From Onthophagus taurus (taxonomy: Eukaryota; Arthropoda; Insecta; Coleoptera; Scarabaeidae): a DNA stretch of 64,000 nt. The notes below the pieces were generated by a model, which was not told the origin of the DNA, searched no databases, and was given only the letters and a program-made list of their open reading frames with translations. Made by a program: the position numbers and the translations under genes. The first letter of the stretch is position 1, and each line of letters begins with the position of its first letter. Positions 4,615 to 62,510 of the stretch are shown piece by piece. The DNA lies in the NCBI RefSeq assembly GCF_036711975.1, contig NC_091970.1, positions 751,501 through 815,500 on the forward strand. The letters run 5' to 3'.

Positions 4615-5872
4615 ATGGGTATTTTAGAGAAAATATCGGAAATTGAGCGAGAAATATCCCGGACACAAAAGAATAAAGGTTAGATTATTATAAAAAATTT
4701 TTTTTGAGGTTATGTCAATTTAATTTTTAGCTACCGAGTACCATTTGGGTTTATTAAAAGCGAAACTAGCTAAATATCGGTCCCAATTACTAGAACCATC
4801 GAAAAAAAGCGAAAAAGGTGAAGGATTCGACGTTTTAAAAAGTGGAGATGCTCGAGTTGCTTTAATTGGATTCCCTTCAGTTGGAAAAGTACTCTTTACA
4901 ACAACATAAAATAACAACAAACTATTTTTATCGCTATTTTAGTCCACCTTATTATCAACACTAACAAAAACGGAAAGTGAAGCTGCTTCATACGAATTCA
5001 CAACTTTAACTTGTATCCCTGGAGTTATCGACTACAATGGGGCTAACATTCAACTTTTAGACTTACCTGGAATAATAGAAGGGGCTGCTCAAGGTAAAGG
5101 TAGAGGAAGACAAGTAATTGCAGTAGCTAGAACTGCCGATTTAGTCCTAATGATGTTGGATGCTACAAAAAAGGACGTTCATCGCGATTTGTTGGAAAGG
5201 GAATTAGAAAGTGTTGGGATTCGATTAAACAAAGCAAAACCAAACATTTATTTTAAAATTAAAAAGGGTGGCGGGATTTCGTTCAATTCGACTTGTCCCT
5301 TAACGAAAATTGATGAAAAATTAGTTCAATTAATTCTTCATGAATATAAAATTTTTAATGCTGAAGTTTTATTCCGCGAAGATTGTAATGCTGATGAATT
5401 AATTGACGTGATTTGCGCAAATAGGGTTTATTTGCCTTGTCTTTATGTTTATAACAAAATAGATCAAATTTCTATCGAAGAAGTGGATAGAATTGCGCGC
5501 CAACCTCACAGTGTAGTTGTAAGGTATATTTTTAATTATCTTAATTATCTAACCTATAATTTATAAATTTAAAATGATTCTAGTTGCAACATGAAACTAA
5601 ATCTAGATTTTTTGTTGGAAATATTATGGGAATATCTACAATTAATTCGGGTTTATACAAAAAAACCGGGTCAACCCCCAGATTTTGCTGATGGTTTAAT
5701 TCTAAGAAAAGGAGTTAGTGTTGAACATGTTTGTCATGGTATTCATCGCACTTTAGCGCAAGCGTTTAAGTATGCTTTGGTTTGGGGTACTAGTACCAAA
5801 TATTCACCGCAACGCGTTGGGGCGAACCATATCATGCATGATGAAGATGTTATACAGATTGTTAAGAAATAA
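4615..5872 (+). CDS. DRG2: Developmentally regulated GTP-binding protein 2 (DRG2)
   Basis: Obg/DRG-family GTPase associated with translating ribosomes. Exons are 4615-4678, 4731-4888, 4943-5523 and 5584-5872 (363 aa), with phase-consistent GT/AG introns of 52-60 bp. The start [20 protein letters not shown] and the family hallmark [18 protein letters not shown] favour DRG2 over DRG1. The P-loop GFPSVGKST (residues 68-76) is split by intron 2 after the Lys. G3 is [18 protein letters not shown], and G4 is NKID within [10 protein letters not shown]. The C-terminal TGS domain ends with the typical [11 protein letters not shown]-like terminus. Length matches the 364 aa human protein. The helix-turn-helix/S5D2L2 segment reads [10 protein letters not shown], as in DRG2. 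Confidence 0.95.
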
Positions 5873-8500
5873 TTTGTTTATTACTACTCGATTTAATTGT
5901 AAAATTGTATTGCAATATTGAAAAGAAAAATGAAAAAGAATAGGATCAATATTATACAAGAAAATGATTTATTTTAACTTTTATATATACGTACTTTAAT
6001 TTTTGTTGTAATATTTGTTAACATTTTAACCCAAAAAACTGACATACCAATGGTATGTACAGATTTCTTTTTTTTAAAGATTTTTAGTTCAACCCCTCAT
6101 CAACAGATTGCGCCACTTTATTTAAATTTTCGCCGTAATAACTTAATTGATTGGATTTAACTTAAAAATCACTCAATATATAAATATCATTATTGAATGT
6201 AGTCTTGTAGATATTTACCCCTTTAAAATAAAAATTTTTGATTTTATGTTTTTTTGTAAATCTCCTAATACTTTTTAATAAATACCTCCTCGATCTTGGA
6301 TACAACACCTAATTTTACCTCATCGAAAATGAAAATTTGGATTTTTGTACATCGTTTAGGTTTTTTCAGTAACATGGGATAATAAATAAAGTTATATTTG
6401 GAACTTACCTGTATTTATTAAGAATTTAATCTGACGTTGACGTATTCACGTTTAATTTTCGTACCAACCTAAATTTCAATAAAAATAAATTATTTTTAAA
6501 AGTATGCAACCCAATATACACTTGATTATTAGAAATAATAAATTAAATAGAATTTTCAAAAGATTTTATTTAAATTTATGCGGTATACAATAACCTGTAA
6601 CATATACACAATATCAATAAATACAATAAATACAATTCGTACCTTGTAGCCGCTTAGTTAGTGTCGGAATGTGGTGTGTTTCTTTAAAAATTAATATTTC
6701 CTTTCGTTTAAATATAATACTATTTAGTAATCGTCCTAACAGTCACTGCCAAAGGTTTTTCTTTTTTTTTTGAGATCGAAAAAGTAGATAACAAACAAAA
6801 ATTAAAAAAAATTCAAACAAAAAATAAATTTGACTATTATTTAAAAGTTTAATATTATTCATTATTATTAATTATATATAGTATATATATTTATAATAGA
6901 ATTTTTTCCTTATTTTTTGGGTTTCCACAAATTTACTTATTTTTAAGAATATTATTTTTTCTCGATTTCTTCAAGAGATAAAGAGATAGGGTTTTTATTT
7001 ATTATTTTTTCTTTTTTTGTTTTTGGGGTAAAGAATGCTGCTATTCTTGGGGTTAATGCTAAAAACGCGGGGAAAATTCGTGAAAACATCTTTCTTTTTT
7101 CGATAATTAATCAAATTTAACACAAACGACCACTGCAACTATAAAAATAAACATGTAAAAGTACAACAAGCTCCTACAATAGTATAAGTTAAGTTACTTT
7201 TTTGTATTCTTTTCACGATCGTTATTTTATTTCATCATTTAATTTTTTTTTCGTCTTAATTTTGGTCCTTAATCATTTTTTTTATCGTCTCATCAAGTAT
7301 TTTTTATTATTCTTTTCGTCTTTGTTTGATTTTTTTTTAATACAACTTCGAACTCTTTATTTTATCTTTATTTCATCTTAATTTCGTTTTCGTCAATAAA
7401 TTTTGTAGTCATCTTAGCACCTACTTATTTGTTAACACATTTTAAACTAATTTTTTTTTTTTAATTAATTAAATCTAAGATATATAGCGACCGTGTTTGT
7501 ATTTTTTTAAATTTTTTTAAATAGCAATTAACACCAATTATGTTTTTTTAAGTAAAAGTTGATTATATGAGCTAAGATTTTTCTTTTTTATCAAAGAGAT
7601 GATTTCTTTTTCGCTTCTTTGAGGAACTTTAATCAATCTTTTTTTCCTATCTTGAGAGGTATCTTTGGTTGTTGTTGTTTTTGTTGTTGTCGTTATTTTT
7701 TTTTTACAATTTCTTTTTTTGTGCGTTTTTGTCTCTGACAGTTAAGCATTTAACTTCACTTTATATTAAAGAAAAAATCCACCTTTTTAAACAATTAAAC
7801 TTTTTTTCTCCTCAAAAAGCAAAAAAGAAATCCCCCCCTTCAAAAAAATTCTTTTTATTTACACCAAATTACAACATTTTGTTCCTTAATACGGTTACAC
7901 AAACATTGATATTGATTTTTTTTAAATTTTTTTAATCTGTATAAAACTATTTTTTAAAGGAGACAATTATTACATTTTTATCTTGCTTATTTTGCCGGTT
8001 AAATACTTTTAAACATTATTAAATATATTAAAATCTACTTCTCTTAAGTTAAACACACATAGATCGCTAATTATGGTACATTCAGATGGTTTTAAAACGC
8101 CAGAAATTACAAAGTTTTACGACATTACGCTAAAGGCTGTTGTCCTTTCTTTATTTATAACAATCGCAAACAAATAAAGCGATTAGGGCTAACTAAAAAG
8201 ACATTTTTTATTAATTTATATTCTTTTTTTCAATTTTTGATTGCTAATAATTTGCTCAGAACGTTTACCGTGCAGCGAATTTCAGTTTTTAAACATTTTT
8301 CAAATTCAAAAATTCGATTTGAACCCCATCTATTGAATAATTTTCATATCAAATTTCTAATTCAACTTAATTTTCATTATATTTATAACATTAGTAACAT
8401 CATTAGTGTGTTTTGAACAATTTTCTTTTTTATTTCACATTTTTAAACGCTATTATTGTTTTTTCAAATTTTATTAAATCTTTTAAATGACAAGTTAGAT
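5873..8500. other. AT-rich gene-free stretch
   Basis: The interval contains long T and A runs and AT-rich low-complexity sequence; the only open frames (for example 7669-7935) are by-products of poly-T. The DRG2 3' UTR presumably occupies the first few hundred bases. No RNA gene, TE protein or conserved frame is recognised. Confidence 0.5.
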
Positions 8501-8503
8501 GTA

Positions 8504-11500
8504 GCGCCATCTATCGGAAAATCTCGCAAATTTCAACTGTCACTTCCTTGTAGTATTTAAATATAATTTTATAACCTTTTTATTGCTTCTCATATCTTAA
8601 GAACCAAAATAACTTTATTCGTTTTCATTTCTCTCATTTTATTACAACTGAGATATATTTTTTATGCGTAAAATTAAATTATTTGTCGCCAAGATCAAAA
8701 CGTTTTTAGGAACTTTATCGAGCATCATTCGCCCTAATTTATACCAACGCAACAAAATAAATAAATTTAGTACCTTAATAACTCATCCTTACACCATTAT
8801 TTACTTCACAATTAAAAAAAAACACGTTTTAATCACTTGGGATTGACAGCCACAATCTAGGTTAAATTTAGCGCCATCTATCGAATTATCTCAAAAAAAA
8901 CATTAAATTTTTAATTAATTATTTCTCACCTATTATTAAACATGAACTTTAAAAATTAATATTAATCATGTTTTTCTTTTGGTGCTTTTATCCAATTTAA
9001 CATCTTAGTTGTTTCTATTTTATTAACATTTTATTAATGACAACAAAAACCGCCATCTATTGGTCACCTCAATAACTAAATTAATATTTCGTTAAAAAAA
9101 ATCGATTATTACCTTTCTGCGTATTTGCTAATAAGATAACAAAGATTTATCGATTTTGATTGAGAAATAATAATTAATAATTAATAGAAGTAATTATTGA
9201 TTTATTTCGACGAAAATCTCTTCTAAAATGACAACTATAAATTGTTAGATTTAGCGCCATCTATTAACTAATTGTTTAAAAATTAAATTTAATTAACAAA
9301 AACAATAAATAATTTTATAAATAATAATAATTTATCATTAAATTATAATAATATTCGTATTTTTAAAATTTGTACAGGAAAAAATCAAATTAAACAAAAA
9401 AAATCATCAATAATTTTTTTTTTATAAATACTCACCACAATTGATAAATAAACCATAAATATATCATAACGACAAATTCTTAATCACGCATTTCGCTCAA
9501 AATATTAATTTTACGATGTTTTTGATCAACAATTTTGCTTCTAAAATGACAGATATCTTTGAAATGACAGCAATATAGGTTAGATTTAGCGCCATCTATT
9601 GAATAACGTTGTAATATCAAATAACTTAAATTAAAATTAAATGTTAATTTGTTTCTACAATCCATAAAAAAACTCAAAATATAAATATTACGACGAGATC
9701 TCCTTAATTTTATTTCATGAATTGAGGTTGCCTCAAAACTTGATAAATTAAATTCTTTTTGTTGTTAACTTTGTAAGTTATCTTAATGATTTTGGATCGA
9801 TTTAAATTGTTATGTTTCTGTTTGAGTGTATTTTTTTAATTAAAATAACAGCACGGAAATTATTAATTATTTATTACGCCATCTATTGAGTTACCTTGAA
9901 ACAAATTATTAAAAATTCATATTTAATTGTTAAACATTTTAAAGATGAACTTTCAAAATTTACTTACTTCTATGATTTCTTTGATCAATTTACTATTATT
10001 TGTCTTTATTTGTTTTTCTTTGAATTAGATTTAGCGCCATCTATTAAGTGATTTCGAAACTTTTCCTTTATTATTGATTTATTTTTGCAAATTTATTTAA
10101 AAAAAAATACAACAATAAAAGAATTTGGATTTAATTAAAAACCGCGGTAAGATCTATGGTTTCACTTTATATCTTTATTTTTTGTGTTTTAGCAGCGTTT
10201 AATTGTTCAATTTATTTTTAAACTTTGAAGCTAACATTTTCTGCCATTGATCTGCATATTTTTAAGAGTACAATGAAAAAACTTTGAATTATTGAACCGT
10301 TTAGTTAAATCCGAACACTTTTAAGCCGATTTTTCGTTTTTGAGTGGATTAATCTCAGTTTTTGATGGATTTGTCATATTTTGGTACATTTTTGGATAAT
10401 TTAATCGAATTTTATTATCTCCTATAAGTTATTGCTGTTATTTTTCGTTCCATAAAGATATAATTTTTATTATATTAAAACTGATATTCACCTTTATCTT
10501 TTTGTTAACCTTAAAACTAACAGTTTTTGCCTTTTAATTTAGCCACAATCGCCTTATTTATTTATATCGTCACTTTTAATTTACAAATTCTTTGAAACAA
10601 GTCCCCAAATTTTTCTTTTTTAATCTAAAATAGCTTTTAATCTTAAAGAGTCGAGTGTACTTGTCATGAATCTCTATCTTTGTAGAAGTATTTTGACTAC
10701 ATAAATTTGTTTTAAGTGATTTTATTTTGTGTTGTGACTCAATCGATTTATTTACGCTAAAAGTAACCTAAATAATTCTCTTTTGTAACCTTATTTCTTA
10801 TTGTTAATTTCATTAAGTTTTTCTTTGGTTATTTTATTTCTTTGGAATTGGAGTCAGCTTTATTTTTAATGTTTTTTGAGCGAATTAATCATTAATTTTG
10901 AGTGCTTTTCTGTTGTTCTTTTTGAAATTCTTTTTATAATCCTTTTTGAAAATCGTTTTTGAAAATCTCTTTTGAAACTCATTATATTCTCTTAATAAAA
11001 ACTACTAAATTCTGCGAAAACAAACGAAATGGTCCCGTTTGAAGTATTAACGCTATTTTTCTTTCTCATTTTTTGATATTTATTCACCTTTTCGCAAATT
11101 GAACCTATTTCAAAAAAAAAATTCATTTTGGTACCCCATCTATTGGATAATCTTGAAAATAAAAAATTTAAAATTCAAATATGTTTTCTTACATCTCACA
11201 CGCAAATTTTTATAATTTTCATTATTTTTATTTTTGTTAATGTGTTTTGAACAATTTTCCTTTCTATTTCTTAAGTTTCTTTTCGTGTATTTAATTAAAA
11301 TGTCATTTCGTTTAATCTATTGAATAATCCTGGAAATAAAATATTAAAAATTCAAATTTAAGTGTAATTTTTACCTTTTAAACGTGAACTTTCAAAATTT
11401 TTATTATTTTTTACGTTGTCTCTGAATTTTCCAAGTATTTTCTCTTTAAACAATTTTTTTTTGCGTGTTCCATTAAAATGACAAATAAACAGTTTAGATT

Positions 11501-12090
11501 CAGCGCCATCTATCGTACTATATCGAAAATAGGTATTTTTTTTTATTAAACTTATTAAAATATTTAAACAAATTAATTTTCATTATCAATTTGAAAGGAA
11601 TTTTTAAATATTTTTACGTTGTTTCTCAATATTCCAAGTATTTTCTCTTTTTAATTATATTTTTTGTGTGCTTCATTATAATGACAACTAAACATTTAAG
11701 ATTCCGCGCCATCTATTGGATTATTTCGCAAATAAATATTTTTTATTAAAATATTTAAACAATTTAATTTTCATCTTTAATTTTTTGTTATTTTTACGTT
11801 GTTTCTCAACATTTCAAGTATTTTCTCCTTTTATTTTTTTTTGCGTATTCATTATAACAAATAAATATTAAAGATTCCGCGCCATCTATTGATTATTTAA
11901 AAAATAAACATTTATTTGTTAAAATATTTAAACAATTTAATTTTCATTATCAATTTTTAATAATATTTTGTTATTTTTACGTTGTTTCTCAACATACCAA
12001 GTAGTATTTTCTCTTTTTAATTATTTTTTTGCGTTTTTCATTAAAATGACAACTAAACACTTAAGATTCAGCTCCATCTATTGGGTTATC
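8504..12090. repeat. Dispersed GCGCCATCTA motif series (degenerate part)
   Basis: A short GC-containing motif, TTTAGCGCCATCTATTG or close variants, recurs in otherwise AT-only sequence. Starts are near 8504, 8871, 9050, 9254, 9589, 9877, 10034, 11134 (CCCCATCTATTGG variant), 11503, 11706, 11879 and 12071 (GCTCC variant). All are in the same orientation. Many neighbouring gaps are 157-204 bp, and others (335, 367) are near twice that. Flanks are only loosely alike, suggesting an old, decayed tandem array in which the motif itself stayed more constant than its surroundings. Confidence 0.75.
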
Positions 12091-12659
12091 TCGAAAATAA
12101 ACTTATTGTTTAAACAAACTAACTTTTATTATTAATTTTCATCCTTTTTTGCAGATAATTTCCTAGTTATACTTACACTGTTATTGTTTTTAATAATTCC
12201 TTGAGTATTTCGGATCAAATTCTCAATAATTATTCGATTTCTCCAAATTTAAACAAATAATTCACAAGTCCTTGTTTTTAATTTAATAATTTAACATGAA
12301 CAGTAGTTATTCCTTCAGTTCGTTTAAGTTCATTATCAACATTTCTCATGAGATTTATTAAAACGATTCTGTGATGTACATCGTTGTAACTAAAACTTAA
12401 TCGTAATAAAATTTGTGGTTGTGTAAACCAATAAAATCACAAGATTTCATCATTTTGTTCATCAACTTTTAAGAAACACAATTTTCTTTGTTACATAACC
12501 TAAAATAAAATAATTAACCACAAATATTTCATCCCTGTTTACGTTATCATCAAAATCTTGCAAATTTTATGTAATTTTCTTTTTACTTCACATTATTAAC
12601 TTAGTTTCGCATTATTATTAATTTTTCTTCGCATAATTATTAATTATTTTCTGAAGTGA

Positions 12660-14060
12660 CAGCTATTATTCTTTCAATGACAGCTAAAACAGGTTAGGTT
12701 GAGATTTAGCGCCATCTATTGAGTTATCTCGAAAATAAAAATTTAAAAATTCAAATTTAATTGTAATTGCAACATTTTAAACGTAAACTTTCAAAATTTA
12801 TTTTATTTTATTGTTTAATCAAATTTTTGTTTCTTTCGACGTGTTTATTAATACTATTTCGATATTCCATTGAAACGACAGCGGCGAAATGAGCGCCATC
12901 TATCGGGCTATTTTTACATAATAATAATAATTTTTTTTTAATTTTAAACTTAATTCTAATTATTAATTAATTAATTTTCAAAATTTAATTATTTCTAAGA
13001 CGTCTTTATGTGTTTTAATTAAATTTGTTTCTTTTGACATATTTATTAATATTTTTTCGATATTTCATTGAAACGACAGCGACGAAATCAGCGCCATCTA
13101 TTGGGCTATTCTTTACATAATAAATAAATTTTTAATTTCATTTAATTCTAATTATTAATTAATTAATATTTGAAAGATATTTTCTAAATTTAATTATTTT
13201 TAAGACGTCTTTATGTGTTTTAATTAAATTTGTTTCTTTTGACATATTTATTAATTCTTTTTCGATATTGGATTGAAACGACAGCGACGAAATCAGCGCC
13301 ATCTATTGAGCTATTCTTTACATAATAAATAAATTTTTAATTTCATTTAATTCTAATTATTAATTAATTAATATTTGCAACATTTTTTCAAAATTTAATT
13401 ATTAATGACGTCTCTGTGTTTTAATTAAATTCTTGTTTCTTTTGACGCGTTTATTAAAACTTTTTCATTGAAACGACAGCGGCGCCATCTATCGGGCTAT
13501 TTTTTATATAACAATAAACATTTTTAATTTCAAAGTTAATTCTAATTATTATTAATTAATATTCGAAAGATATTTTCAAAATTTAATTATTTCTGTGACG
13601 TCTTTATGTGTTTTAATTAAATTTTTGTTTCTTTTGACGTATTTATTAATACTTTTTCGATGTTTCATTGAAATGACAGCGCCATCTATCGGGCTATTTT
13701 TTATATAAGAATGAAAATTTTTAATTCCAAATTTAATTCTAATTAATATTTAAAAAATATTTTCAAATGACGTCGTTATGTATTTCAATTAAATTCTTGT
13801 TTCTTTTGACACATTTATCAATTATTTTTCGATATTTCATTGAAATGACAGCGGAATCAGCGCCATCTATCGGGCTATTTTTAATATAATAAAAATTTTT
13901 AATTTCATTTAATTCTAATTATTAATTAATTAATATTTGAAAGATATTTTCAAAATTGAATTATTAGCGACGTCTTTACGTGTTTTGATTATTTTTTAAG
14001 ATTATTTTTGTGTATTCTGATAATAAAATTTTCCATTTAGCGCCACCTATTGATTTTTTT
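12660..14060. repeat. Tandem ~190 bp array with one GCGCCATCTA per unit
   Basis: Motif starts are at about 12709, 12893, 13091, 13296, 13482, 13679, 13860 and 14040; the last is GCGCCACCTA. Spacings are 184, 198, 205, 186, 197, 181 and 180 bp. Here the whole unit is recognisable: a CATTGAAACGACAGC block, then GCGCCATCTATCGGGCTATT, a TAATTCTAATTATTAATTAA block, a GACGTCTTTATGTG block and a TTGTTTCTTTTGAC block. This is the younger, better conserved end of the motif series that begins near 8.5 kb. No ORF is present. Confidence 0.88.
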
Positions 14061-15750
14061 GTAAATAAAATGTTTGACGTTTCTCGTTAATGTTGTCTTT
14101 TAGTGTTTTTTCGCATTATTTTTCCATTTAGTGTTGTGTTAAATGTTTTATTCGAGTGTTTAAAGGTAGTTTGTTGTAACAATTCCATTCATTAATTTGA
14201 AACTAATTAAAATCGGTTAAATAAAATTGTTAATCATGAAGCAATCATCCAAGTTTTAAACACTTTTCTTAAATTAAACGTTTTAAAAATTGTTTTAAAA
14301 GTAACAAATATTTATTTATAACAATGTGAAAGAAATGTTCTTTAGTAATTCGCTTTTAAATAATTTATTGCTTAAAAAATTGGAATCTTGTTCGAGATTT
14401 TCTTCAATTATTTTACAGGTTTCTGTAATTATTGCTAATAATGACCAAAAATTCATTTTGTTATAAATATTTATTCATTAAAAAAAATGTCATTATTATT
14501 GTTGTTTGTCTTTGTAGCAATAATTTCTTTTTAAAAATAAATTTTTTCTTGTTATTATTACTATAATTATTATTTCCTGAAGTCGAATTTTATTGTTTCA
14601 ATTTAAAAAAATTTCCCGCTTATTTATTAATATTAAAAAATGAGTATAAACGATGCAATTGTTAATGTAATTCAATAATTTGATAAAAAAATAATTTGTT
14701 TAAGTAATAAATAAGCGAAAAATTGAAAATTGCCTCCAGAAAAATAACTCTTAGACCATTATCGTTTTTAAATTTGTTTAAAAAAAAATGTTTCGAGAAA
14801 AATTTGTGCGTTTTTTCAAATATACCAACGACCGACATAAAATTTGTGCGTTATTCAAAACTTTCGTTCCCAAAAAAATAATCAAAAATAAACGATCAAA
14901 CGGAATCCGTCCCAATCTAATATCTCCCCCCAAAAAATCCCGATATTAATTAATTAATCAATTCAAAAGAAAAATCAAATAAACAAAAACATTTTTTTTG
15001 TCTTTTTTTATAATATTTATGCATTTTTTCTTCATTATGTCTCAATTATGTCCATCAAGTTCATCATGTTAGTTTATTTATAATATTTTTTGTTGTCATC
15101 ATCATTTTTTTATCATAAAATAAACCCCATTTAAAATATTTTTAACAATTAATACTCCGGAAAAATTTTTATTATTATCTTTATATCCTTATTTCTTCCG
15201 GTTTTAGAAATACAAAAAAAAATCAACTCAAATCCCCGAGATTAATCTCAAATTGTATATAAAAACGTGTATTATTTCATGTGTTGTGTATTTTTATGTT
15301 TTAAAAGGAAGAAAAAATGAAAACCCACCCCTAAAAGCATTTCGAGATTTCATTAACCGATTTTAAGTCGCTTATTTTGTATTATTTTCGTTTAAAGTTT
15401 TAGCAGGGACCAACGTAAAAACAAAGCTTTAATGAAAACGACTCAATCGCGGTTGATTAAAACCCCGAAATTATTTTCTTACATATCGTCACACTGTAAA
15501 CGGACAAATTCCTTTTTTAATTTATTAATTTTTAGAAGAGAAAGGATTATTCGTCCTGAATGTAACGATTTATAAGAACCCACCCCCTAAACGTTTTCAT
15601 TTTTTCTTCCAAACGTTAATACTTCAATTCGGACCCAAATCGCGTTTAAAAAAAAATTAATTAATCCTACCCTGTATTATATGTATCAATATATTAATAT
15701 ATTATTATTTTAATTTAATAAACAAGCACTGACTCCATATTAATTAATTC
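14061..15750 (-). other. 3' flank / probable 3' UTR of unc-104
   Basis: AT-rich sequence immediately downstream of the unc-104 stop codon. Several AATAAA-type signals exist on the minus strand, so the polyadenylation site cannot be chosen by eye. The part at 15.3-15.7 kb, with more mixed composition, is the most UTR-like. No other gene is seen. Confidence 0.45.
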
Positions 15751-31088
<15,338 letters not shown>

Positions 31089-33181: not shown

Positions 33182-36100
33182 CTAGGATGTTGTTGCGATG
33201 AGCGGTTGAATCACATCAGACACTATAGGTTTCACAATACTCTCTTCCGTCTTCTTGTTGGACAGAGGAGCAGGGGTCGAACTCTGCGAGTCCTAAAATA
33301 ATACAACGAAATTATTAATGATAAGTTAAATCCATAAGCTAATTTCTAAAAAAAAACTAACACTTAAACAACGCAAGCTATTAAGTAGCTTGGATTTTCT
33401 ATAAAGATGCAGAGAAAAGAAGAATTCGTTACATTTTTCTGATTACAAAAATATGGGGTTAGATAGGTCTATTTCTTATTGTTTTAGAATAAAGCTAAAA
33501 ATAAACTTTTTTTAGTGTAGTCAAAGAATTAAAATTTACAGTTTCCTGTAATCCATTTTTTGTTTTTTTATGGTTGGCAATAAATAATTTGACGTTTACT
33601 GGAAAAATAAGTCAATAAATACAAAAACAAAACGTTGCGTTAAAATAGCGGATAACAACGAATAAAATTAATTTGACGTTTACAAAGTTAGGTTTTATTT
33701 TTGTGCATAATCACGTGGGAAATTAAAAATCCTTTAATTTGAGTCCAAACACGAGACAATTATCTTAAAAAACACCCGAGATATCACACATTTAATTTTG
33801 ACATAACCTCAAAAAAGTGACAACCGGAAGTTGGTGGTGTATGTTGTTTTTTAAGATAACTCGACCGAGTTTAGGCTCATTTTAAAGGGAATTTAATGTA
33901 GATTACGAATACGATGTTGGTTTAATTAAATTCTGTCAAAATAAAGACAAAATGGCGGATAATTCAATGAAAAATGATACGATTTGAACGAAATTAAGTT
34001 CGCGGGGACTTTTAAATAAAAATATAGAATTTCGCTATTATTTAATTAAAATTATTAATCAAGATGGCGCAAAATATCAAATAACATCAATTTGACGTTT
34101 ATAAAGTGATCCAAAAATAAAGTTTTTCGTTATTACTTATAAGATATCACTATGTTGCATATTTTTATTAGCCGCACGTCTCCAAAGACGGCTAAACCCG
34201 AATGATTCTAGTTCTAGGTTAAGTGTTAGTTATAGTAATAGTGCTAGTGTAAAACTAGAACTAACATTAGACTTAGAACTAGAAACATTAGTCACATCTT
34301 AGTCATTTATGGGTTTACATCAAAAATTTTTATCAAAAATATTCAAATCAGTTGAATGGTCCAGGAGATATTAAAATGTAAACATTTAAAACTAGAGACT
34401 ATGAACGACCTGAAAGTTTCTAGGTCTAGTGTTAGTTCTAGTGATAGTGCTACTATTATTGCTAGTTTTAGTTTAAACTAACACTTATTTTAAAATTTAT
34501 TTTCTAAAAATGTTTACTACAATTTCTAAAAGAAAACTTTTCTAAATCCTATCTAAAATGTTTACCTTCCCCTATTCATCTATTACTTTAATAAATTAAC
34601 CACAAAACACAAATTTTTAAAGTTCACAAACTTACGTCGATATTGAGAGTAAACTGTGTGGAAAACATCCACAACAAACTTTTTCGCCTTACAATTAAAA
34701 TTTTGGTTAATTTTGTACCGATTAATAAAACAATAATTTTCCTTTTCATTTTGTACAGGGGGTGGCCAAATAAGCATACAAAGTACAACCAAAGTAAGTG
34801 CTGGACAACCGTCCAGTTGATCAAGATACCCAACTGATCAAAACCATTAAATCTTCTTTCATCGATATTTTAGGTTAGGAACAAGATATCAAGGCACGGC
34901 TTTCACTATCTTGTTTAGGCTTCATTTTGCTATTTTTTCATATAAAAAAAATGCCAACAGATTTAACCTTTACAAAAAAAACTCACAATTTCAAATTTAT
35001 TAAATTCTAGACATGTCAAAATGACGTTTTATTAAACAAAAAGTCACTAGGTGTGTTATAATTATTTTTGCGTTTCATGTTGGTAACCATTTTTTTTTGA
35101 CGTTTAATTAAATTGTCAATAGAAACGATCGTCGGGCAAAAGATGGCGATAGTTAACTTTCTAGTTCTATACTCTGTTTTTCAACCAGGAGGAGTAAACG
35201 CGAAAGTCAGATTTACACTAGGAAAAATCACCAGAAAATATCACGCGGTAAATTTAAATTAATAATTATTTTTATTTATTTATTTACTTATTATTGTATT
35301 TATTTTCGTTTGTTATCGTCAACACTAAACATACAAATTAACATTGAAGTTATGAGTGTATTTATTTCAAAATATAATAAAGAAGGGTTTAAGAACACAA
35401 AATTTACAATAATGACACGAAACTTGTCAATAACCTAACCTTCAAATTCAAAATTGCCTGTGTGTGAACCTTCCTCGCATTCAACCAATCACGTGCAAGG
35501 TCAATCTGGTGACAAATTTAAAATACTCCTCCTGGTTTAAAAACAGAGTATAATTGCCAAAGAAACCTTCAAGGTATAATTAATGTTTGTAAACAAAACT
35601 AACCTTACCTAACATTCCTTCACGCTATAATTGACATTATAAAAGAAAACTTCACGCTATAATTGCCATTACTAATTGCCAAAGAAAACTTCATGGTATA
35701 ATTAATGTTTGTAAACAAAACTAACCTTACCTAACATTCCTTCACGCTATAATTGACATTATAAAAGAAAACTTCACGCTATAATTGCCATTACTAATTG
35801 CCAAAGAAAACTTCATGGTATAATTAATGTTTGTAAACAAAACTAACCTTACCTAACATTCCTTCACGCTATAATTGACATTACAAAAGAAAACTTCACG
35901 CTATAATTGCCATTACTAATTGCGGAAGAAAACTTCATGGTATAATTAATGTTTGTAAACAAAACTAACCTTACCGAACATTCCTTCACGCTATAATTGA
36001 CATTACAAAAGAAAACTTCACGCTATAATTGCCATTACAAATTGCCAAAGAATACTTCATGGTATAATTAATGTTTGTAAACAAAACTAACCTAACATTC

Positions 36101-39100
36101 AGCGTCTGAAGACACAGGGCTAAACCCGAAACTTAAAAATATACAACTTAGCGCTGAATAACAATTAAAACTAGAACTAACACTTGCACTAGAACTATAC
36201 TCTGTTTTTAAACCAGGAGGAGTAAACGCGAAAGTCAGATTTACACTGGAAAAAATCACCAGAAAATATCACTAGATATTTTGGCGGTAAATTTAAATTA
36301 ATAATTATTATTTATTTATTTACTTATTATTGTGTTTATTTTCGTTTGTTATCGTCAACACTATACATACAAATTAACATTGAAGTTATGAGTGTATTTA
36401 TTTCAAAATATAATAAAAAAAGGGTTTAAGAACACAAAATATACAATAATGACACGAAACTGTCGAATTATCAATTACCTAACCTTCAATTTCAAAATCA
36501 AAATTCAAAATTGCCTGAATACTCCTCCTGGTTTAAAAACAGAGTATAGTGTTAGTTCCAACTTTAGGTTTAGAAGTGACACTAAACGTAGAGCTAGAAA
36601 CATTCGAGTTCCTAAAATGTAATAATTCCAAATACCTGTCACAACTGTTGCTCAGTTCCTAGTGATATATAGCATAAATCCCGAAAATGTCAAAATAGGA
36701 TGGGGTTTCTTAATAAAATCAATTATAACCTAAGTACTAAAACTGATGGAGAAAGACGTTATGAATAAAAAATGATCCTAATGCATCAATAAATCATGAT
36801 CCACACTTATTTCATATTTATCTATCACATAAATTCCCAAAATGCATCAATATATACTTTTTTGTTATGTTAATACAGCGGAATTCCGATAAAAGCCACA
36901 TTTTTAAATTCAATACGGCGGTTACGCCACCTAGTGATCATCTTAGAAACTTGAAAATAATTTCCAGGATTTTCTCTTACCTACTTTAGTGGTTACATTT
37001 TTTACCGCTAGTCTCTATAAAGCAGTTTCTGAGATACAGTACTTTGCACGCTTATTTGGCCAACCTGTGCTTAAAAACACAAAAATTACTCACCTTTGAC
37101 ACATTACATTGAGAACCGACTTTCAAATGGATTTTTTGCGAACATAGCCTCTTTAAAACCGCAATTCCTAAAAAAAAAACATCAAAATGATTCACTTTAA
37201 ATAATTAATTTAGAAAAAATTAACCTTTTCCCCTTTTATTCTCGTACTTAGATTCCCAAGCATCGAATAATCGATTATAATATCTCGGCTCCATAAATTT
37301 GAAATAACAATGTGTTTTCGACGTCGGAAAAATCCTATCGAACGACCCTTTCACCGTCAATTCATCCTCAGCTTGTATTAATAATCGCACATCATCACCG
37401 GTTAACGTATCTAAAATCGTTCTAAGATACTCTCTATCTTCACATTGGACATAAAAGTTATGTTTTTGGATTTCACGTTTTGTAAGCGACCACGAGTATA
37501 ATTTCGGTTCGAAACAACCGATCGGTTTGTTCGGGTCAACTGGGAATCTATTCACTTTTGGTGGTAAATGAAATTGGGCCAAATCTAATAACGCTTTAAC
37601 CAACGGTCCTTTTACGTAAGCGTCCAAAGGGGAAGCACTGTGAAGACTCGGCGAAATGTTAACCTCTAATAACCAACACTTTAATTTGTCGTCTAATAAA
37701 ATATCAACACCAAATAGTTCGTAACAATTATAACGATTATTCATGTACTCCTTGGCAAGTTGGGTGATTGGAGATTCACCACAAATCATCGTTTTAATAA
37801 CTAAATCTTCCATTTTTTTCCATAAAACTTTTGTGTCGACTCCATCCTTTTCCATAAACTCCCACAGTTTCGATAAGGTCCATTTGTGTCCTTGACATGA
37901 AAACGCGTCTTCATTTGCTGTGTACTCACTTGAATATTTGTTAATGCTGTAATTTGTTAGGTGTTTATAACGATCTTGTAAGTCTTCGACTCTATGACTG
38001 TATTTGGCTTAAAACAAATTAAATTAATTTAAAAAAAATAAATAAGATTTAAAATTTACCACTTGCGAATCTTGCTAAACCTTCTGGGTAAAGATAAATT
38101 CGTAACGGGTTGAAACTTGTTACTAAAACGTATAAACGGAGATCAAATTTGCTGCCATTGATTAGGTAAGGGTTTGAAATGTAGCGTTGAACGACGAGGG
38201 ATTGTTTTTTAGGTAATTGGGACCATTTGTTTATCACTTTAATTCCGGTACCTCTTGCGGAAGCAGGCTAAAAATTTATTTTTTTAAATAAAGTTTAAAC
38301 GTCAATGTGACACAAATTCAATGTCACCAACTTCACAACAATTTGTCAAAATTAAACGTTAATTTTATGAAACGTCATGTTTTTTTTTACGAAAATTAAT
38401 TAATTTGTACTTTGTCCACGACTACTATTGAATTTGATTCCATAAATTAATTTTTTTAAATAAATTTTTGAATAAATCTTAAACGTCAGTGTGACACAAA
38501 TTCAATCAACGGTAACCAACTTCACAACAATTCGTCAAAATTAAATGTCAATTTTATGAAACGTCATGTTTTTTTTTACGAAAATTAATTAATTTATACT
38601 CTGTCCACGACTACTATTGAATTTGATTCCATAAATTAATTTTTTTAAATAAATTTTTGAATAAAGTTTAAACGTAAAAGTGATACAAATTCAATGTCAC
38701 CAACTGTAACCAACTTCACAACAATTCATCGAAATTAAATGTCAATTTTATGAAACGTCATATTTTTTCAATGTCATTTTCAAAAATGAAAAAATTAAAT
38801 TTTTATTGCAATAAACAGATATTACTTACCGGTTTGATGATAAATATTTCATTTCCGATTCCGCTTTTTTCCTCCCAACATTGTTTCAACATTCGTAAGT
38901 CTTGTGGGATCACAAATGATTGCGGCATGAATTCGAACTCTTTGTATCCGTGTATATACATCAATCGTTGGAGGTTCCGCCACAAGCGGTCTTTTCTGCC
39001 AATTTGGAACGTACCGGGAAAATGATTAAGCTTTTGCGTTTCTTTCAACGTTTGAAATTGCGGCGATCTCATGTGTTTTCCCCAACAACCCAACCAATCG

Positions 39101-52146: not shown

Positions 52147-55100
52147 TAGGGGGCGTGTCGGCCGCGGGTGGAGCTGCTCTAAGGGCGGCGGCCGGCGTCG
52201 GCGATGCCCCCGCGTGCTCCCGTCTCCTCGGCCACGCTCGTTGCGTGCGTTTCAGCAGGGACGAACTCGGGAGGTCGGCATTGCATTTATCAGCAAGCGG
52301 GGGTCACGTGGCGGTCGTGCGATTGCTTTTGGCGGCAGCCGCCCCCCGTGAAATCGACAGCCCCGATGGTGCCGGATGTACAGCCCTTCAACGGGCCGCC
52401 GCTGATGGTCACGAGGACGTAGTAAAACTCTTAATATCACGAGGAGCTGATGTCAATAAACAGGATAGTGTGGTAAGCTAAAATAAATACCTTTCATACT
52501 TTTTACTACGAGTAACGCGAATTTATATAGGCAACCAAATATGCGTAGTGTGTTTGTGTGTAGCATAAAAATGTTGAAAAATGTTTGTTTTTGAGATGAC
52601 ACCTCCTCTATTTCATGGTTTCCTCCTCCAACTCAACGACACATTTTGTTCAATCTATATAACCTTTGTCTATTCGCCTTAACCAGTTCAATGGGATTGA
52701 ATTGGCAATGGTATTGAATGGTTTTTGAGGCCCCACTCATTGGCAAGTTCACCAAGAGTCCACATAGCAATATTTTTTCTGTTTATTGACTCCACAAAGA
52801 AGTTGACATGATGAAGATAAAAACCTATTAGAAATAAACCCATAGGATACGGAAAGACTATGCACGAAAATACGATGTTTTAATTTAAATTTGAATAATA
52901 TAGGTACATAATTTTTGTATGACGGCAATAGTTATGGATTTATAAAGGGTAAGCCGTGTATTGTAGCGTTAGTATTCCAAAATTAGCTGACGCGGGCGAC
53001 CAAAATGTGTATTTATCCTTGGAGAAACACGAAGAAACGCTTTATTTTTATAAATCTATTACAAAACGTATAGGCATGGAAACTTTATTCGCAAATTTAT
53101 TGATTTGTACACAAATGTACTTTAGAGAAGAAAGGAAGGCAATAAAACTTGTTGCAATTAGTGGTTCACTCAGATCATTAATGTTTTTATTTTCGTCGAA
53201 AATGATACTTTCTCCATAAATTATAATCTGTTTTTTAGTTAAATCAATTGTCAAAGTGTCGTCAAGTTGGTATTGAAAGTAAAAGCGCATGTCGTGACTT
53301 TTACTTTAATTGTGTGCCACCACTGTCTATCAAATTTGTTAAGATTGATTAAAAAACAATTTTCATATAATTTTTTTGCTGCTAAATCTACCATAAAAAT
53401 GTTAAGAAAGGGTGGAACGGGATGTCAACTGTCTAAACGCGAAAAAAACTCTATAATTAGGTATTGTGAAGAAGTACAGACGGAGACACCAAATACGAAT
53501 TTAAAATATATATGTGATAAAGCTTCACGTATTTTATATTCAACATAATTGTATTAGGTTCACAGCACGACGGTTTTTAAAATTATTCAAACCTACAAAA
53601 AATATCAAACTGTAAAAAAACCAAAAACACTGTAAAATGAACTACAAAACGGATAATAATTTATATTTTATTACAGAAGAGTTAGGAAGACAAATACTTA
53701 ATGATTTACTTAATTTTGCAAGAAATGAATGTGATTTTACTAATGGTAGATCAAAATTACATAAAATTATAAAATCTATGGGATATAGATATAAAAAGAT
53801 TAGCAATAGAAAAGTGTTAATTGAACAACCACATATAGTTTCAAAAAGAATTAAATTTTTAAAGACATATTTGCAATACCTAGAATCCGGAGAGTATACT
53901 TTTGTTTTTCTTGACGAAACTTGGATTTACGAAAATGGCACCCAAAAATGAAAATGAAAGATTCGGTATTCCGCAAAGAGCAGAAGGCGAAGGAAAAAGA
54001 TTTACAATCTTGCACGCAGGCACTTCGTCAGGGTTTTTGCCAAATTGCGATCTCTTGCTCAGTGACAACACGGAGCACAGAGATTATCATAAAAATATGA
54101 CGTCAATTATTTTTATGGAATGGGTGAAAAATCAATTACTTCCAGCATTAAATAATTTGGGTGCGAAGTGTGCGGTAGTAATGGATAATGCTCCATATCA
54201 CTCAAAACAAATCGAGAAAGCTCCAAGTTTCTGCACAAAAAAAAATGAACATAATATACAGTTTGAACCAACTTTAAATAAAAAATCGTTATGGGAAATA
54301 ATCCGTTATTACAAGCCTCAAATTGAAAAATCCTTTGAAATTGACAAATTAATAAGAGACCATGGCCATACTGTTCTTCGCCTTCCTTCATACAATTGCC
54401 AATATAATCCCATTGAACTATGTTGGGCGTTCTTAAAAACTTATTACAATAAACATGTTCAGTCCAGCTCGGGGAAAAAGATCTGTCGTGTCAAGGAGAC
54501 TTGGCAAAAAGCTCTTGGTCATTACACTCCGGAGATGTGGGCAAATAGTGTTCGCCACTGTGGAGAACTAATTAAAAAAGATTGGACAACATTAATGGGA
54601 AATTCATTAATAACTGATATACCTCCTGTCATCATCCAACTAGCGGAAGACTCAGATTCTTCCAGTAATTCTGATTTTTAAACAATATTCAAATTTTAAT
54701 TATAGCACTTAATTATGTTATCTTAATATATTGCTCACGAGTTTTAATTTCAAAACGTAGATATTAGCCAAGTGACGAGAGATTAGTGGCATGGTGTGCA
54801 ATCTTACTACTATAAAAATGTAGACCGAGATTTAGTACCCTCACAATCCACTGGATGACGTTGTAGACTGAATTTGCAGCAATCTGCATTATCTACACAA
54901 ACAAAGCGCTTGAAACCATAGAAAAATTTATGTGTAACGTCAAACTCAGAGGTGAAAGCAAACGTCACATTTTTGTTTTGTCGTTTAGTGTGATAACCCC
55001 GTTGTATAAGCAAATTTTCTTCCTTACGTTCATTTGGCTTAGTGTTTTATATTCTTTAGTTAAGTATTTAAATAAGTTAGGGCCACTTTTACCACCTCTT

Positions 55101-58100
55101 GATAAGTTTATCCGATAGATAAATTGGCGCTCTCAGCCAATGAGAGCAATATACGTTAAAAATTATGAATATTATCTTGGAAAAACTTTAAATTAATATT
55201 TTTTCCTATTTATTTGGAAAATGCGCTTTACCTCCTCAAAATAAAGTAATGGTATAAATCGGTATAGAAATACCTATATTTAAATTTCGCGCTTTAACTT
55301 AATTAGTTCCCTCACAATCCCCTTGGGAGCGCTTGTACCAAAAAATAGTGGGGAGATCACCTTCTATATACATAATACATATAAATTTTTCTATGATTAG
55401 TGGCTTCGTCTTTAAAGTGACAATCAGTGACAACTTCGTTTAGAATATACATAACCTTACTTATTATTTAGTGGAAAATATTATAAAGCGTGGTCATAGA
55501 ACATGGTATCTAGGGTGGTACAGACCGTTTTTTTATAAAAATTTGGCAATGACAATTGATTTAAATAAAAAACAAACTATATTTTCTTGTTTGTTAGGTG
55601 CCAAAGTCGTATCCTATCATTATGCAGGTGTCAGCGCATAGAAAAATTTATATATATTATGTATATAGAAGGTCATCTCCCCACTATTTTTTGGCACAAG
55701 CGCTCCCAAGGGGATTGTGAGGGAACTAATTAGGTTAAAGCGTGAAATTAAAATATGGGTATTTCTATACCGGTTACCATTACTTTATTTTGAAGAGGTC
55801 AAGCGCATTTTCCAAATAAATAGGAAAAAATATTAATTTAAAGTTTTTCCAAGATAATATTCATAATTTTTAACGTATATTGCTCTCATTGGCCGAGAGC
55901 GCCAATTTATCTATCGGATACACTTATCAAGAGGTAGTGAAAGTGGTCCTAACTTATTTAAATACTTAACTAAAGGATATAAAACACTAAGCCAAAAGAA
56001 CGTAAGGAAGAAAATTTGCTTATACAACGGGGTTATCACAACTTATCACACTAAATGACAAAACAAAAATGTGACGTTTGCTTTCACCTCTGAGTTTGAC
56101 GTTACACATAAATTTTTCTATGGTTACAAGCGCTTTGTTTGTGTAGATAATGCAGATTGCTGCAAATTCAGTCTACAACAGTCTACAACGTCATCCAGTG
56201 GATTGTGAGGGTATTAAATCTTGGTCTACATTTTTGTAGTAGTAAGATTGCACACCATGGTGTCAGCGTTTGAGTCGAATTTCTTCTTTAATTGTTTTGG
56301 TTTTAAGTTATACGCAATACATCCAAATACTTTTATTTTCTTGAAGTTAATTTTCTTTTGATAAAACATTTCTGCTGGTAGCTTATTTTCTTTTAACGCT
56401 GTTGTTGGAGATCTGTTTACTAGATAAGCAGCACAATTTTGATAATAAACCTTGATATCTCAAGGAAAATCGCTGCTTTTTGCGAAATCTAAACATGCCT
56501 TTGTCATGATAAGAATATTTTTTAATATAGAATATTTTTATTTTTTTTAGCATGGAAATAGTGCTTTACATGAAGCTTCATGGAAAGGTTACAGCCGAAC
56601 TGTATCAATTTTAGTGAATTCCTCTTGTAATTTATCTCAAATGAACGCGGGCGGATTTACCGCGTTACATCTTTGTTGTCAAAACGGTCATAATCAATCG
56701 TGTAGAGAATTATTATTGGGCGGATGCGATCCGGACATTCAAAACAATTACGGTGACACCTCTTTGCATACGGCCGCTCGTTACGGTCACGCTGGGGTTA
56801 CCCGAATTTTAATTTCCGCCCAGTGTCGAGTTTCCGAACAGAACAAAAACGGCGACACCGCGTTACACATAGCGGCTGCGATGGGCAGACGAAAATTAAC
56901 TCGAATTCTTTTGGAAGCCGGTTGCGATAAATCGGTGCGAAACAAACAACACGAAACCGCCGAAGATATAGCGTTAAGAAAGGATTTACACGAAATCGTC
57001 AACATTTTGGATCAACAGCAATTAGCGTCGGAAAAGATGAAGAAAGATCGGAAAAAAATCAAAAAGCGGTCCAAGAGTAAAGTTCGATTTGATTCGACGA
57101 AAAAAAACGAGGCTTCGTCGAAAGATGACGTCGATTTAGAAAAATCGAAACATTGGTCGCCGTACGGTTGTCATTATTACCCGGATCCGGAAGCGTTTCC
57201 GGCGCCGCGATTAGATTCGCTTCCTTCGGAACCGTTAAAACGGGGGGAGCAGTATTATTTGGATTTGGCGGGAAATATTCGGAAAGGGCCCGTGGGGGTT
57301 GGGTACACGTGTTATTGTGCCCCGCTTTTCCGGCATTTGGAGGCGCGCATGGAGAAGGATAAGCGAGAGCTCCAAAAGGCACAAATGCGTTTGGGGCAAC
57401 GCGTCGCCGGATTGGAACAAAAAATTAGCCGGGGGATGCATGGAAGGAGATCGGAACGAATTCACAGTATGCGAGAGCAGCAACAAACGAGTCTTCCGCG
57501 ATCGAGAAGTCTTGAAATGTTGGATGGAAATTGTAAGATACCGTTACACACTGCAAGGTGAGTTAAATTATTTTATTTTAACCTTTTGTGTCCCGATGGT
57601 ACTTTAGGTAGTTTTAAACACTCATTTTAAACTGTAGTCATCTATTCGGCGCATTTTATTATGGATTTAATATGAGATCTTAACTAATTATTTAAAAAAA
57701 TTTAATTAGAAGTATGGATGAACTAGAAAATCAACAACAACAACAACAAGAACCCAGGAAAACCGTAAAAGAATTAATCGCCCAAATCCAAAAGAAAGAA
57801 GCAGCCTCTTCGAAAACAGCAGAAAATTCAGAAAGTAGCGACGACGAAGAAGATCCACCACTACAACAACACCCAACGCAACCTTCTTATCAATGCGGCA
57901 CATCGCTCAATCAATCTTCCAACCACCACCACCACCCTCAACATCATTCGATTGCAACAAATCCGCCGAGTTATGAGAATGTTCCCTCCATGGACGCACC
58001 ACCTCGCAGTCGTTCCGGCTTATATAGTCCAACAACAATGGCATCACTGGTCGATTCAAAAATGCGTTACATCGAACCTGTGGTGCGTGTTCAAGAATAC

Positions 58101-62000: not shown

Positions 62001-62225
62001 TCTAAATCGTTTTGGACAATTTCGACTCATTTCAACATTACCTCAAACTACAACTTAATATCGTCCTGACATCTATTAACGACATATCTAACTGCTGTCA
62101 AAATCATTTCTGACATCTGTCAAAGTAATATCAAAGAATCTTCATTTTTGGTAAGTTTGAACTTATTTTAAAAGATTTTTTATTAAATATCCAATAATTT
62201 GGATCAATTTTAATCGTTCTTAACT
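59073..62225. repeat. ~327 bp satellite-like array, about 9-10 units
   Basis: The marker TTTTTGGTAAGTTTGAAC recurs near 59203, 59535, 59869, 60190, 60518, 60844, 61170, 61498, 61825 and 62145 (gaps 320-334). Each unit also carries two TGACATCTGTCAA palindrome-like words, TTTGGATCAATTTTAAT, CTCTAAATCGTTTTGGACAA and CGTCCTGACATCTATTAACG. Most units are nearly identical; the first is the most diverged. The array fills the gap between the convergent ANKRD6 and papi 3' ends. Confidence 0.95.
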
Positions 62226-62510
62226 ACTTCATTGTACAATCTTGTAGTTAGCACTGGTTTGGAACATGGTGAAAAACTTTAATCTGTATAATTGAAAATA
62301 GAATAATTTGTATTTAAGCAAAACCTTTAATAATATAACATAACGTCATTTATTAATAATAACTTCAACAAGCTAATTTTGAAAATTAATGATTAATTCA
62401 AGGCACAAATCTTTTTTTACGGTTAAGTATCTACATTTTTAATACTATCTCAAAAAGAAACCGCTATTTACAAACAAAAATTAAATATGTTTTGTACGAT
62501 ATAAAAAAAA

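What the first reader, a model, noticed from the sequence alone, without database searches (positions are those of the whole stretch)
8504..14060. About 20 CTCF-like GCGCCATCTA sites, same orientation, about 190 bp apart
In an almost GC-free background the motif TTAGCGCCATCTAT(T/C)G recurs about 20 times between DRG2 and unc-104. Eight sites at 12709-14040 are spaced 180-205 bp, and the older ones at 157-204 bp or near double. In the older part the motif is better conserved than its surroundings, which hints at selection or at being the part that is recognised. Its reverse complement, TAGATGGCGC, resembles the insect CTCF core (AGGTGGCGC type). One site per nucleosome-length unit between convergent genes could be an insulator or nucleosome-phasing array. 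Single copies also sit near the TSEN2 ATG (43865), at 18632 and upstream of the ANKRD6 first exon (48064).
Basis: partly seen in the sequence, partly recalled or inferred. Interest (0 to 1): 0.75.

Follow-up and report, generated by a model that had tools for sequence, protein, structure and literature searches.

The report
Tandem array of CTCF-like sites
Between two genes that face each other lies a decayed tandem repeat in which little but one short motif, resembling the docking site of the genome-folding protein CTCF, has been kept from unit to unit, which suggests a boundary element built from repeated DNA.

Summary
Twenty-two head-to-tail units (8322-14052, all on +; 16 of 21 spacings 158-205 bp) carry the 14-mer AGCGCCATCTATYG or a decayed form, between the 3' ends of DRG2 (+) and unc-104 (-). 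In 8 old units the motif is 0.888 identical, while the flanks are near chance (0.33) except for the nearest 10 bases upstream (0.59) and a partial downstream signal (0.35-0.45). The reverse complement, C(A/G)ATAGATGGCGCT, fits the CTCF core: 14 array sites match the published consensus with at most 2 mismatches, against 0.01 in shuffles. Human CTCF binds the same core elsewhere (PMC2921154). YY1 long forms, BEAF and CENP-B fit poorly. The period is ordinary here: five other arrays in the window have 163-197-bp units and lack the motif. In the young and mid blocks the motif does not stand out by identity alone. My reading: a local minisatellite whose CTCF-like sites are kept by selection, probably as a multi-site boundary, like the mammalian DXZ4 array, which is conserved only at its CTCF motif. 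Binding, boundary activity, species and genome-wide counts could not be tested.

The parts
8322..14052 (+). whole tandem array, 22 recognisable units, head to tail, mostly 158-205 bp apart
8322..8335 (+). decayed motif AACCCCATCTATTG, 2 mismatches
8503..8516 (+). motif AGCGCCATCTATCG, 0 mismatches
8870..8883 (+). motif, 0 mismatches
9049..9062 (+). motif ACCGCCATCTATTG, 1 mismatch; best array hit of the recalled CTCF matrix under uniform background (16.55 bits)
9253..9266 (+). motif, 1 mismatch (final G to A)
9588..9601 (+). motif, 0 mismatches
9875..9888 (+). motif, 2 mismatches
10033..10046 (+). motif, 1 mismatch (final G to A)
11132..11145 (+). decayed motif, 3 mismatches
11317..11330 (+). 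decayed unit placed by spacing (185 bp from both neighbours); of the motif only ATCTATTG is left nearby
11502..11515 (+). motif, 0 mismatches; start of the mid block
11705..11718 (+). motif, 1 mismatch
11878..11891 (+). motif, 1 mismatch
12070..12083 (+). motif, 1 mismatch
12708..12721 (+). motif, 0 mismatches, after a 638-bp gap
12892..12905 (+). motif, 0 mismatches; start of the young block
13090..13103 (+). motif, 0 mismatches
13295..13308 (+). motif, 0 mismatches
13481..13494 (+). motif, 1 mismatch
13678..13691 (+). motif, 0 mismatches; the stretch between the upstream GAC(AG) box and the motif seen in neighbouring units is missing, the motif is kept
13859..13872 (+). motif, 0 mismatches
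14039..14052 (+). motif with CACCTA (AGGTGGCGC-type core), 1 mismatch; last unit
18631..18644 (+). isolated perfect motif inside unc-104, between reading-frame stretches 17643-18347 and 19089-19319 (so probably an intron); best hit of the recalled CTCF matrix in the window (19.48 bits)
18979..18992 (+). second motif in the same gap, 1 mismatch, 348 bp from the first
15751..20032 (-).

Best explanation
The stretch is a local minisatellite that grew by tandem duplication, judged by eye in at least three rounds (old units at 8.3-11.3 kb and 12.7 kb, a mid block at 11.5-12.1 kb, a young block at 12.9-13.9 kb). Each unit brought one binding site for the zinc-finger protein CTCF (read on the - strand, C(A/G)ATAGATGGCGCT). 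Most of the rest of the old units drifted to near randomness while the site was kept by purifying selection, so protein binding at several sites in a row is the likely function. The most probable job is a multi-site boundary in the roughly 10-kb gap between the convergent genes DRG2 and unc-104: CTCF bound at many equally oriented sites recruits partners and separates the two gene domains. Shown here: the array, retention of the motif in old units, fit to the CTCF consensus. Inferred: binding by CTCF, selection rather than some mutational or conversion process, boundary function.
For: 22 units in one orientation. Old units: motif identity 0.888 in 8 units; upstream flank from -100 to -11 at 0.29-0.33 against 0.33 by chance. 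If the motif had decayed like the aligned flanks (identity 0.400-0.423), 6 or more of an assumed 16 slots keeping 13 of 14 letters has P 1e-15 to 3e-13; at 0.60, about the value of the nearest ten upstream bases, P is 7e-4. Flank models without the motif, built from young units, find 9 places with E below 0.1; all 9 have the motif within 60 bp downstream with at most 1 mismatch, and 3 of them (9932, 11355, 13911) were not in the training set. In young plus mid blocks, G/C columns kept the majority base in 72 of 75 cells inside the motif against 245 of 292 outside (Fisher P 0.004; cells are not independent; first of two cuts for the young block). CTCF: the consensus CCASYAGRKGGCRS (passage of PMC6746451) matches 14 array places with at most 2 mismatches against 0.01 in shuffles. 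The recalled JASPAR matrix puts 15 array sites among the window's top 22 with uniform background (column-permuted matrices: mean 0.77, largest 13 in 100) and 13 with window background; scores 13 array sites at 10 bits or more against 0.007 in shuffles; fits the profile of 21 units best in this one register and orientation (0.540, next 0.182; 0 of 1000 permuted matrices reach it, largest 0.500), and its information per column follows the unit's conservation (rho 0.60, P 0.006). The core TAGATGGCGC lies in the human CTCF site at EBV Qp that bound CTCF in EMSA, a figure legend also naming a footprint (passages of PMC2921154), and in a CTCF site printed in PMC5739101 (passage). CTCF predates insects (abstract of PMC5094011) and the fly motif resembles the human one (passages of PMC3491045). 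Outside the array, sites of 10 bits or more are also in excess: 5 against 0.48, largest shuffle 3.
Against: No binding or contact data. In the 21 units with a readable motif matrix position 7 is A, where the consensus has C or G, so none is a perfect match (0 places at 0 mismatches). Several old variants are poor for CTCF (position 5 changed at 9253 and 10033, positions 17-18 at 9875; core broken at 8322, 11132, 11317); 17 of 21 units scanned satisfy YAGRKGGCRS. In young and mid blocks 20-32 windows are better conserved than the motif. Old units were found by their motif, which pushes their conservation up; the slot calculation meets this only under an assumed number of slots. The mid upstream model's one non-training hit (12763, E 0.71) and two weak young-model hits outside the array (E 0.18, 0.37) have no motif within reach. 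Partial conservation also reaches beyond the CTCF core. Outside the array the consensus at at most 2 (4 against 0.87, largest shuffle 6) or 3 mismatches (18 against 10.9, largest 20) is not clearly enriched. In flies CTCF contributes to fewer than 10% of domain boundaries (passages of PMC7880997). No call established the host taxon, so presence of CTCF is assumed.
Confidence: 0.5

Rival explanations
1. A neutral, decayed minisatellite or short satellite array of the common roughly 160-200-bp type; the motif looks kept because units were found by it.
For: Five other arrays with 163-197-bp units lie in the same window without the motif. Young and mid blocks show no outstanding motif conservation by sliding identity. 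Satellite units are commonly of nucleosomal length (start of the abstract of PMC8122249 in listings).
Against: Flanks of old units are near chance identity while 6 of an assumed 16 slots keep 13-14 of 14 letters. All 9 places found by the young flank model at E below 0.1, 3 of them non-training, lead to the motif. The motif recurs outside the array beyond chance: exact 14-mer 1 against 0 in 300 shuffles, exact 10-mer 2 against a mean of 0.013.
Confidence: 0.2
2. The motif is kept for a different DNA-binding protein: a Pho/YY1-type factor (GCCAT core), an unknown zinc-finger or other factor, or a satellite binder of the CENP-B kind.
For: GCCAT is present in 17 of 21 units. Matrix position 7 is A in the units, unlike CTCF. 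Partial conservation reaches beyond the CTCF core (-10 to -1 at 0.593 and +14 to +38 at 0.44-0.45 in old units), and a GACAG box upstream is shared by many units.
Against: YY1 forms AAGATGGCG and GATGGCGGC are in 0 of 21 units, BEAF CGATA in 7 of 21, DREF and GAF in 0 of 21, the CENP-B box in 0 places of the window on either strand (these strings are recalled). The conserved GCGC side and the C(A/G) side are both CTCF-like.
Confidence: 0.2
3. The array is the central repeat block of a non-autonomous Helentron-type element (HINE), and the motif belongs to the element's own biology.
For: Satellite-like arrays are spread in this way in the Pacific oyster (abstract of PMC7492417); several satellite-like arrays occur in this window.
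Against: No second copy of the unit elsewhere in the window at E below 0.1; among the 25 longest of 248 inverted repeats I saw none that brackets the array with arms that are not AT-rich. Neither excludes an element without terminal repeats, and the rest of the genome was not searched.
Confidence: 0.1

Closest known systems
Mammalian DXZ4/Dxz4 macrosatellite
   Same: [quoted passage not shown] abstract of PMC3218863).
   Different: Primate DXZ4 units are about 3 kb, GC-rich and X-linked, and CTCF is shown to bind; here units are about 190 bp and AT-rich, the chromosome is unknown and binding unproven. DXZ4 was compared between species, this array only among its own units.
Drosophila CTCF-dependent domain boundaries
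   Same: CTCF-type motif in a gene gap; fly CTCF is required for some physical boundaries, with strength generally proportional to occupancy (passages of PMC7880997).
   Different: That they are not minisatellite arrays is recalled. [quoted passage not shown]
Igf2/H19 imprinting control region and chicken beta-globin HS4
   Same: CTCF sites acting as insulators (recalled).
   Different: Few sites, no decayed satellite (recalled); their consensus is printed as CCGCGNGGNGGCAG and CCGCTAGGGGGCAG (passage of PMC6746451).
Alpha satellite with CENP-B box
   Same: Short conserved protein site in nucleosome-length monomers (recalled).
   Different: CENP-B box letters are absent from the window.

Membership tests
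CTCF binding site | match to CCASYAGRKGGCRS | tested here: met
   14 array places with at most 2 mismatches (0.01 in shuffles), 3 of them with 1, none with 0; a constant mismatch at the S position. Met as a near match, not a perfect one
CTCF binding site | conservation per column follows CTCF matrix information | tested here: met
   rho 0.60, P 0.006 over 19 columns, 21 units, matrix recalled from memory
CTCF binding site | bound by CTCF of the species | not testable with these tools
   no occupancy data; species not established; no genome held
DXZ4-type CTCF tandem array | CTCF motif in the tandem unit | tested here: met
   22 units; 17 of 21 scanned hold YAGRKGGCRS
DXZ4-type CTCF tandem array | conservation restricted to the CTCF motif | tested here: inconclusive
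   seen among old units of this array, with partial conservation just outside the motif; not tested between species; not seen in young and mid blocks
DXZ4-type CTCF tandem array | CTCF occupancy and a contact boundary | not testable with these tools
   no data among the tools
DXZ4-type CTCF tandem array | kilobase macrosatellite unit at the locus next to PLS3 | tested here: not met
   units about 190 bp; neighbours are a DRG-type GTPase and a KIF1A-type kinesin. It is not DXZ4; it resembles it
YY1/Pho site | AAGATGGCG or GATGGCGGC | tested here: not met
   0 of 21 units; the bare GCCAT core is met in 17 of 21
CENP-B box satellite | TTCGNNNNANNCGGG | tested here: not met
   0 in the window, both strands
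Helentron/HINE central repeats | shared flanks or termini, many copies | tested here: inconclusive
   no second copy in 64 kb at E below 0.1, no clear terminal repeats among 25 of 248 pairs shown; no genome

The most novel reading that the evidence does not exclude
It would be an independent counterpart of DXZ4 at the scale of single nucleosomes.
Probability: 0.25. Interest if true: 0.75.

Novelty: new variant of a known kind. Interest (0 to 1): 0.55.

Why it matters
A natural ladder of 15-20 co-oriented CTCF-like sites of graded age and quality at one locus would let one measure how sites add up to a boundary, whether a CTCF array phases nucleosomes, and how satellite DNA is recruited as regulatory DNA. 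It would also suggest that the DXZ4 principle, a tandem array conserved only at its CTCF motif, arose outside mammals.

Tried and rejected
Whole-genome motif count: no genome is held for the window, so enrichment was measured only inside the window against shuffles.

Relatives: a two-motif pattern with a 168-197-bp gap gave 9 stretches in viral contigs and 56 in genome contigs. All 65 loci were checked for the 14-mer AGCGCCATCTATYG; 0 of 65 hold it. The 56 carry bacterial or archaeal titles (one is an unnamed uncultured bacterium), the 9 show no organism; their genes were not examined. They are taken as unrelated.

Nucleosome-length spacing as evidence of function: rejected, since five other arrays in the window (Tandem Repeats Finder score 120 or more) have 163-197-bp units without the motif. 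Their best 14-column windows reach 0.96-1.0 because their units are still 85-95% alike, so they are no control for motif retention.

CENP-B box, long YY1 forms, DREF, GAF: absent from the units; BEAF CGATA only in 7 of 21. Structured RNA: no Rfam match at gathering threshold in 5800-16000. Terminal inverted repeats: only AT-rich pairs among the 25 shown of 248.

Papers: ten searches. Most lists were cut to the top rows (for example 20 of 407); judged by titles and abstract starts, none of the listed papers describes this motif as a tandem array in an arthropod. This is an open-access library only and no proof of absence.

Rows dropped: the profile labelled all uses 20 of 22 units (11317 and 14039 left out); the matrix comparison and the consensus check use 21 (11317 left out); all 22 rows are counted but 11317 is out of register there. 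The flank models ou and od were trained on the same units that they found, so I do not count them as evidence.
Full report
Observation. The 10-mer GCGCCATCTA with at most one mismatch occurs 25 times in the window against 0.64 in shuffles; 19 of the 25 lie at 8504-14049 on the + strand. Allowing decayed copies gives 22 units from 8322 to 14052, all in one orientation. Spacings are 181, 367, 179, 204, 335, 287, 158, 1099, 185, 185, 203, 173, 192, 638, 184, 198, 205, 186, 197, 181, 180; 16 of the 21 are 158-205. Tandem Repeats Finder, which does not know the motif, sees two blocks, 11552-12102 and 12807-13991. The array sits between the last coding stretch of a DRG-type GTPase on + (TGS domain, ending at 5872) and the last coding stretch of a KIF1A-type kinesin on - (PH domain, lowest end 15751), so between converging 3' ends.

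Age structure. A young block (12892-13859, six units), a mid block (11502-12070, four units) and old units (8503-10033 and 12708) share, by eye, a core GTTAGATTTAGCGCCATCTATTG-ATTATCTCGAAAATAAA and, in many units, an upstream GACAG box. In 8 old units the upstream flanks from -100 to -11 are at chance identity (0.29-0.33, chance 0.33), -10 to -1 at 0.59, the motif at 0.888, the downstream flank at 0.44-0.45 falling to 0.35. In an aligned set of 11, decayed units included, motif and other columns are 0.806 and 0.400, and 1 of 135 windows scores above the motif window. In the young block the contrast is small (0.938 against 0.818 or 0.861, C/T at the Y position counted as a difference), and 20 of 214 or 32 of 192 windows are higher; the mid block has 0.877 against 0.756 and 31 of 208 higher. 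Pooled G/C columns in young and mid blocks are nevertheless better kept in the motif (72 of 75 against 245 of 292, Fisher P 0.004, cells not independent).

Is retention an artefact of finding units by the motif? Two checks. First, flank models without the motif. The young upstream model gives 11 hits at E up to 1. Nine have E below 0.1; all nine are in the array with the motif within 60 bp downstream, and three of them (9932, 11355, 13911) were not used for training. Two weak hits outside (E 0.18, 0.37) lack it. The mid upstream model gives its four training units and one weak hit (12763, E 0.71) without the motif within reach. The young and mid downstream models each add one weak non-training hit (12734, E 0.68; 12723, E 0.31), both next to the motif at 12708. 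Second, a slot calculation: if the motif had decayed like its flanks, the observed 6 of an assumed 16 old slots with at least 13 of 14 letters has P from 1e-15 (flank identity 0.40) to 7e-4 (0.60). The aligned flank identity is 0.400, or 0.423 within 30 columns; the ten bases just upstream are at 0.593. So selection, or a process acting like it, on the motif is the better reading; the slot number is an assumption.

What binds? On the - strand the unit reads C(A/G)ATAGATGGCGCT. The human CTCF consensus printed in PMC6746451 (passage) is CCASYAGRKGGCRS. In the array 0, 3, 14 and 20 places match it with at most 0, 1, 2 and 3 mismatches; shuffles give 0, 0, 0.01 and 0.21. Outside the array the counts are 0, 1, 4, 18 against 0.007, 0.05, 0.87, 10.9. 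The vertebrate matrix, recalled from memory, ranks array sites high (15 of the best 22 with uniform background, 13 of the best 22 with window background; permuted matrices mean 0.77, largest 13 in 100 runs with uniform background), finds 13 array sites at 10 bits or more (0.007 in shuffles) and 5 outside (0.48). It fits the unit profile best in one register and orientation, and its column information follows the unit's conservation. The same ten letters lie in a human CTCF site that bound CTCF in EMSA (passages of PMC2921154) and in one printed in PMC5739101 (passage). Against this, matrix position 7 is A in the 21 units with a readable motif where CTCF wants C or G, and several old variants are poor CTCF sites. 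Long YY1 forms, DREF, GAF and the CENP-B box are absent, BEAF CGATA is in 7 of 21; the bare GCCAT core of Pho/YY1 is in 17 of 21 units.

The spacing. Arrays of 163 (16170-17567; also read as 324 or 487), 189 (21781-22767), 197 (26016-26534), 195 (27445-28137) and 189 bp (38281-38768) lie in the same window, none with the motif. Unit length near a nucleosome is therefore ordinary here and cannot be used as evidence for phasing.

Mechanism. Tandem duplication multiplied a CTCF-type site; old units lost nearly everything else; young units are a later expansion. A row of co-oriented CTCF sites in a gene gap suggests a boundary. Fly CTCF is required for some physical boundaries, in proportion to occupancy and with at best weak direction, but for fewer than 10% of all boundaries (passages of PMC7880997). 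The step from motif to function is inference.

Comparison. The nearest known thing is DXZ4, where a tandem array downstream of PLS3 is conserved among mammals only at the CTCF motif (abstract and section 10 of PMC3491370; abstract of PMC3218863). The present array is not DXZ4 (unit size, genes), but it shows a like pattern among its own old units. No relatives were found in the two collections scanned.

Noticed in passing
window 18631-18992: Two isolated co-oriented motifs, 348 bp apart, within the unc-104 gene between two reading-frame stretches; the first is the best site of the recalled CTCF matrix in the whole window.
   Followed up: partly
window 16170-17567, 21781-22767, 26016-26534, 27445-28137, 38281-38768: Five further tandem arrays with 163-197-bp units and no GCGCCATCTA motif; this region is rich in short satellite-like arrays.
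   Followed up: partly
window 59142-62228: Tandem array of a 327-bp unit, 9.4 copies, 96% matches, with TGTCA/TGACA words in the unit.
   Followed up: no
window 54790-56259: Long inverted repeat (arms in four pieces, 94-99% complementary, about 240 bp in the middle), like a foldback or MITE-type element.
   Followed up: no
window 36922-36940 (-): Isolated CTCF-like site TGATCACTAGGTGGCGTAA, 14.5 bits with the recalled matrix.
   Followed up: no
window 20904-21773 and 35551-36093: Tandem arrays with 423-bp (2.1 copies, 91%) and 122-bp (4.5 copies, 97%) units.
   Followed up: no
whole window: CpG observed/expected 1.37 at 30% GC, so no sign of CpG depletion.
   Followed up: no
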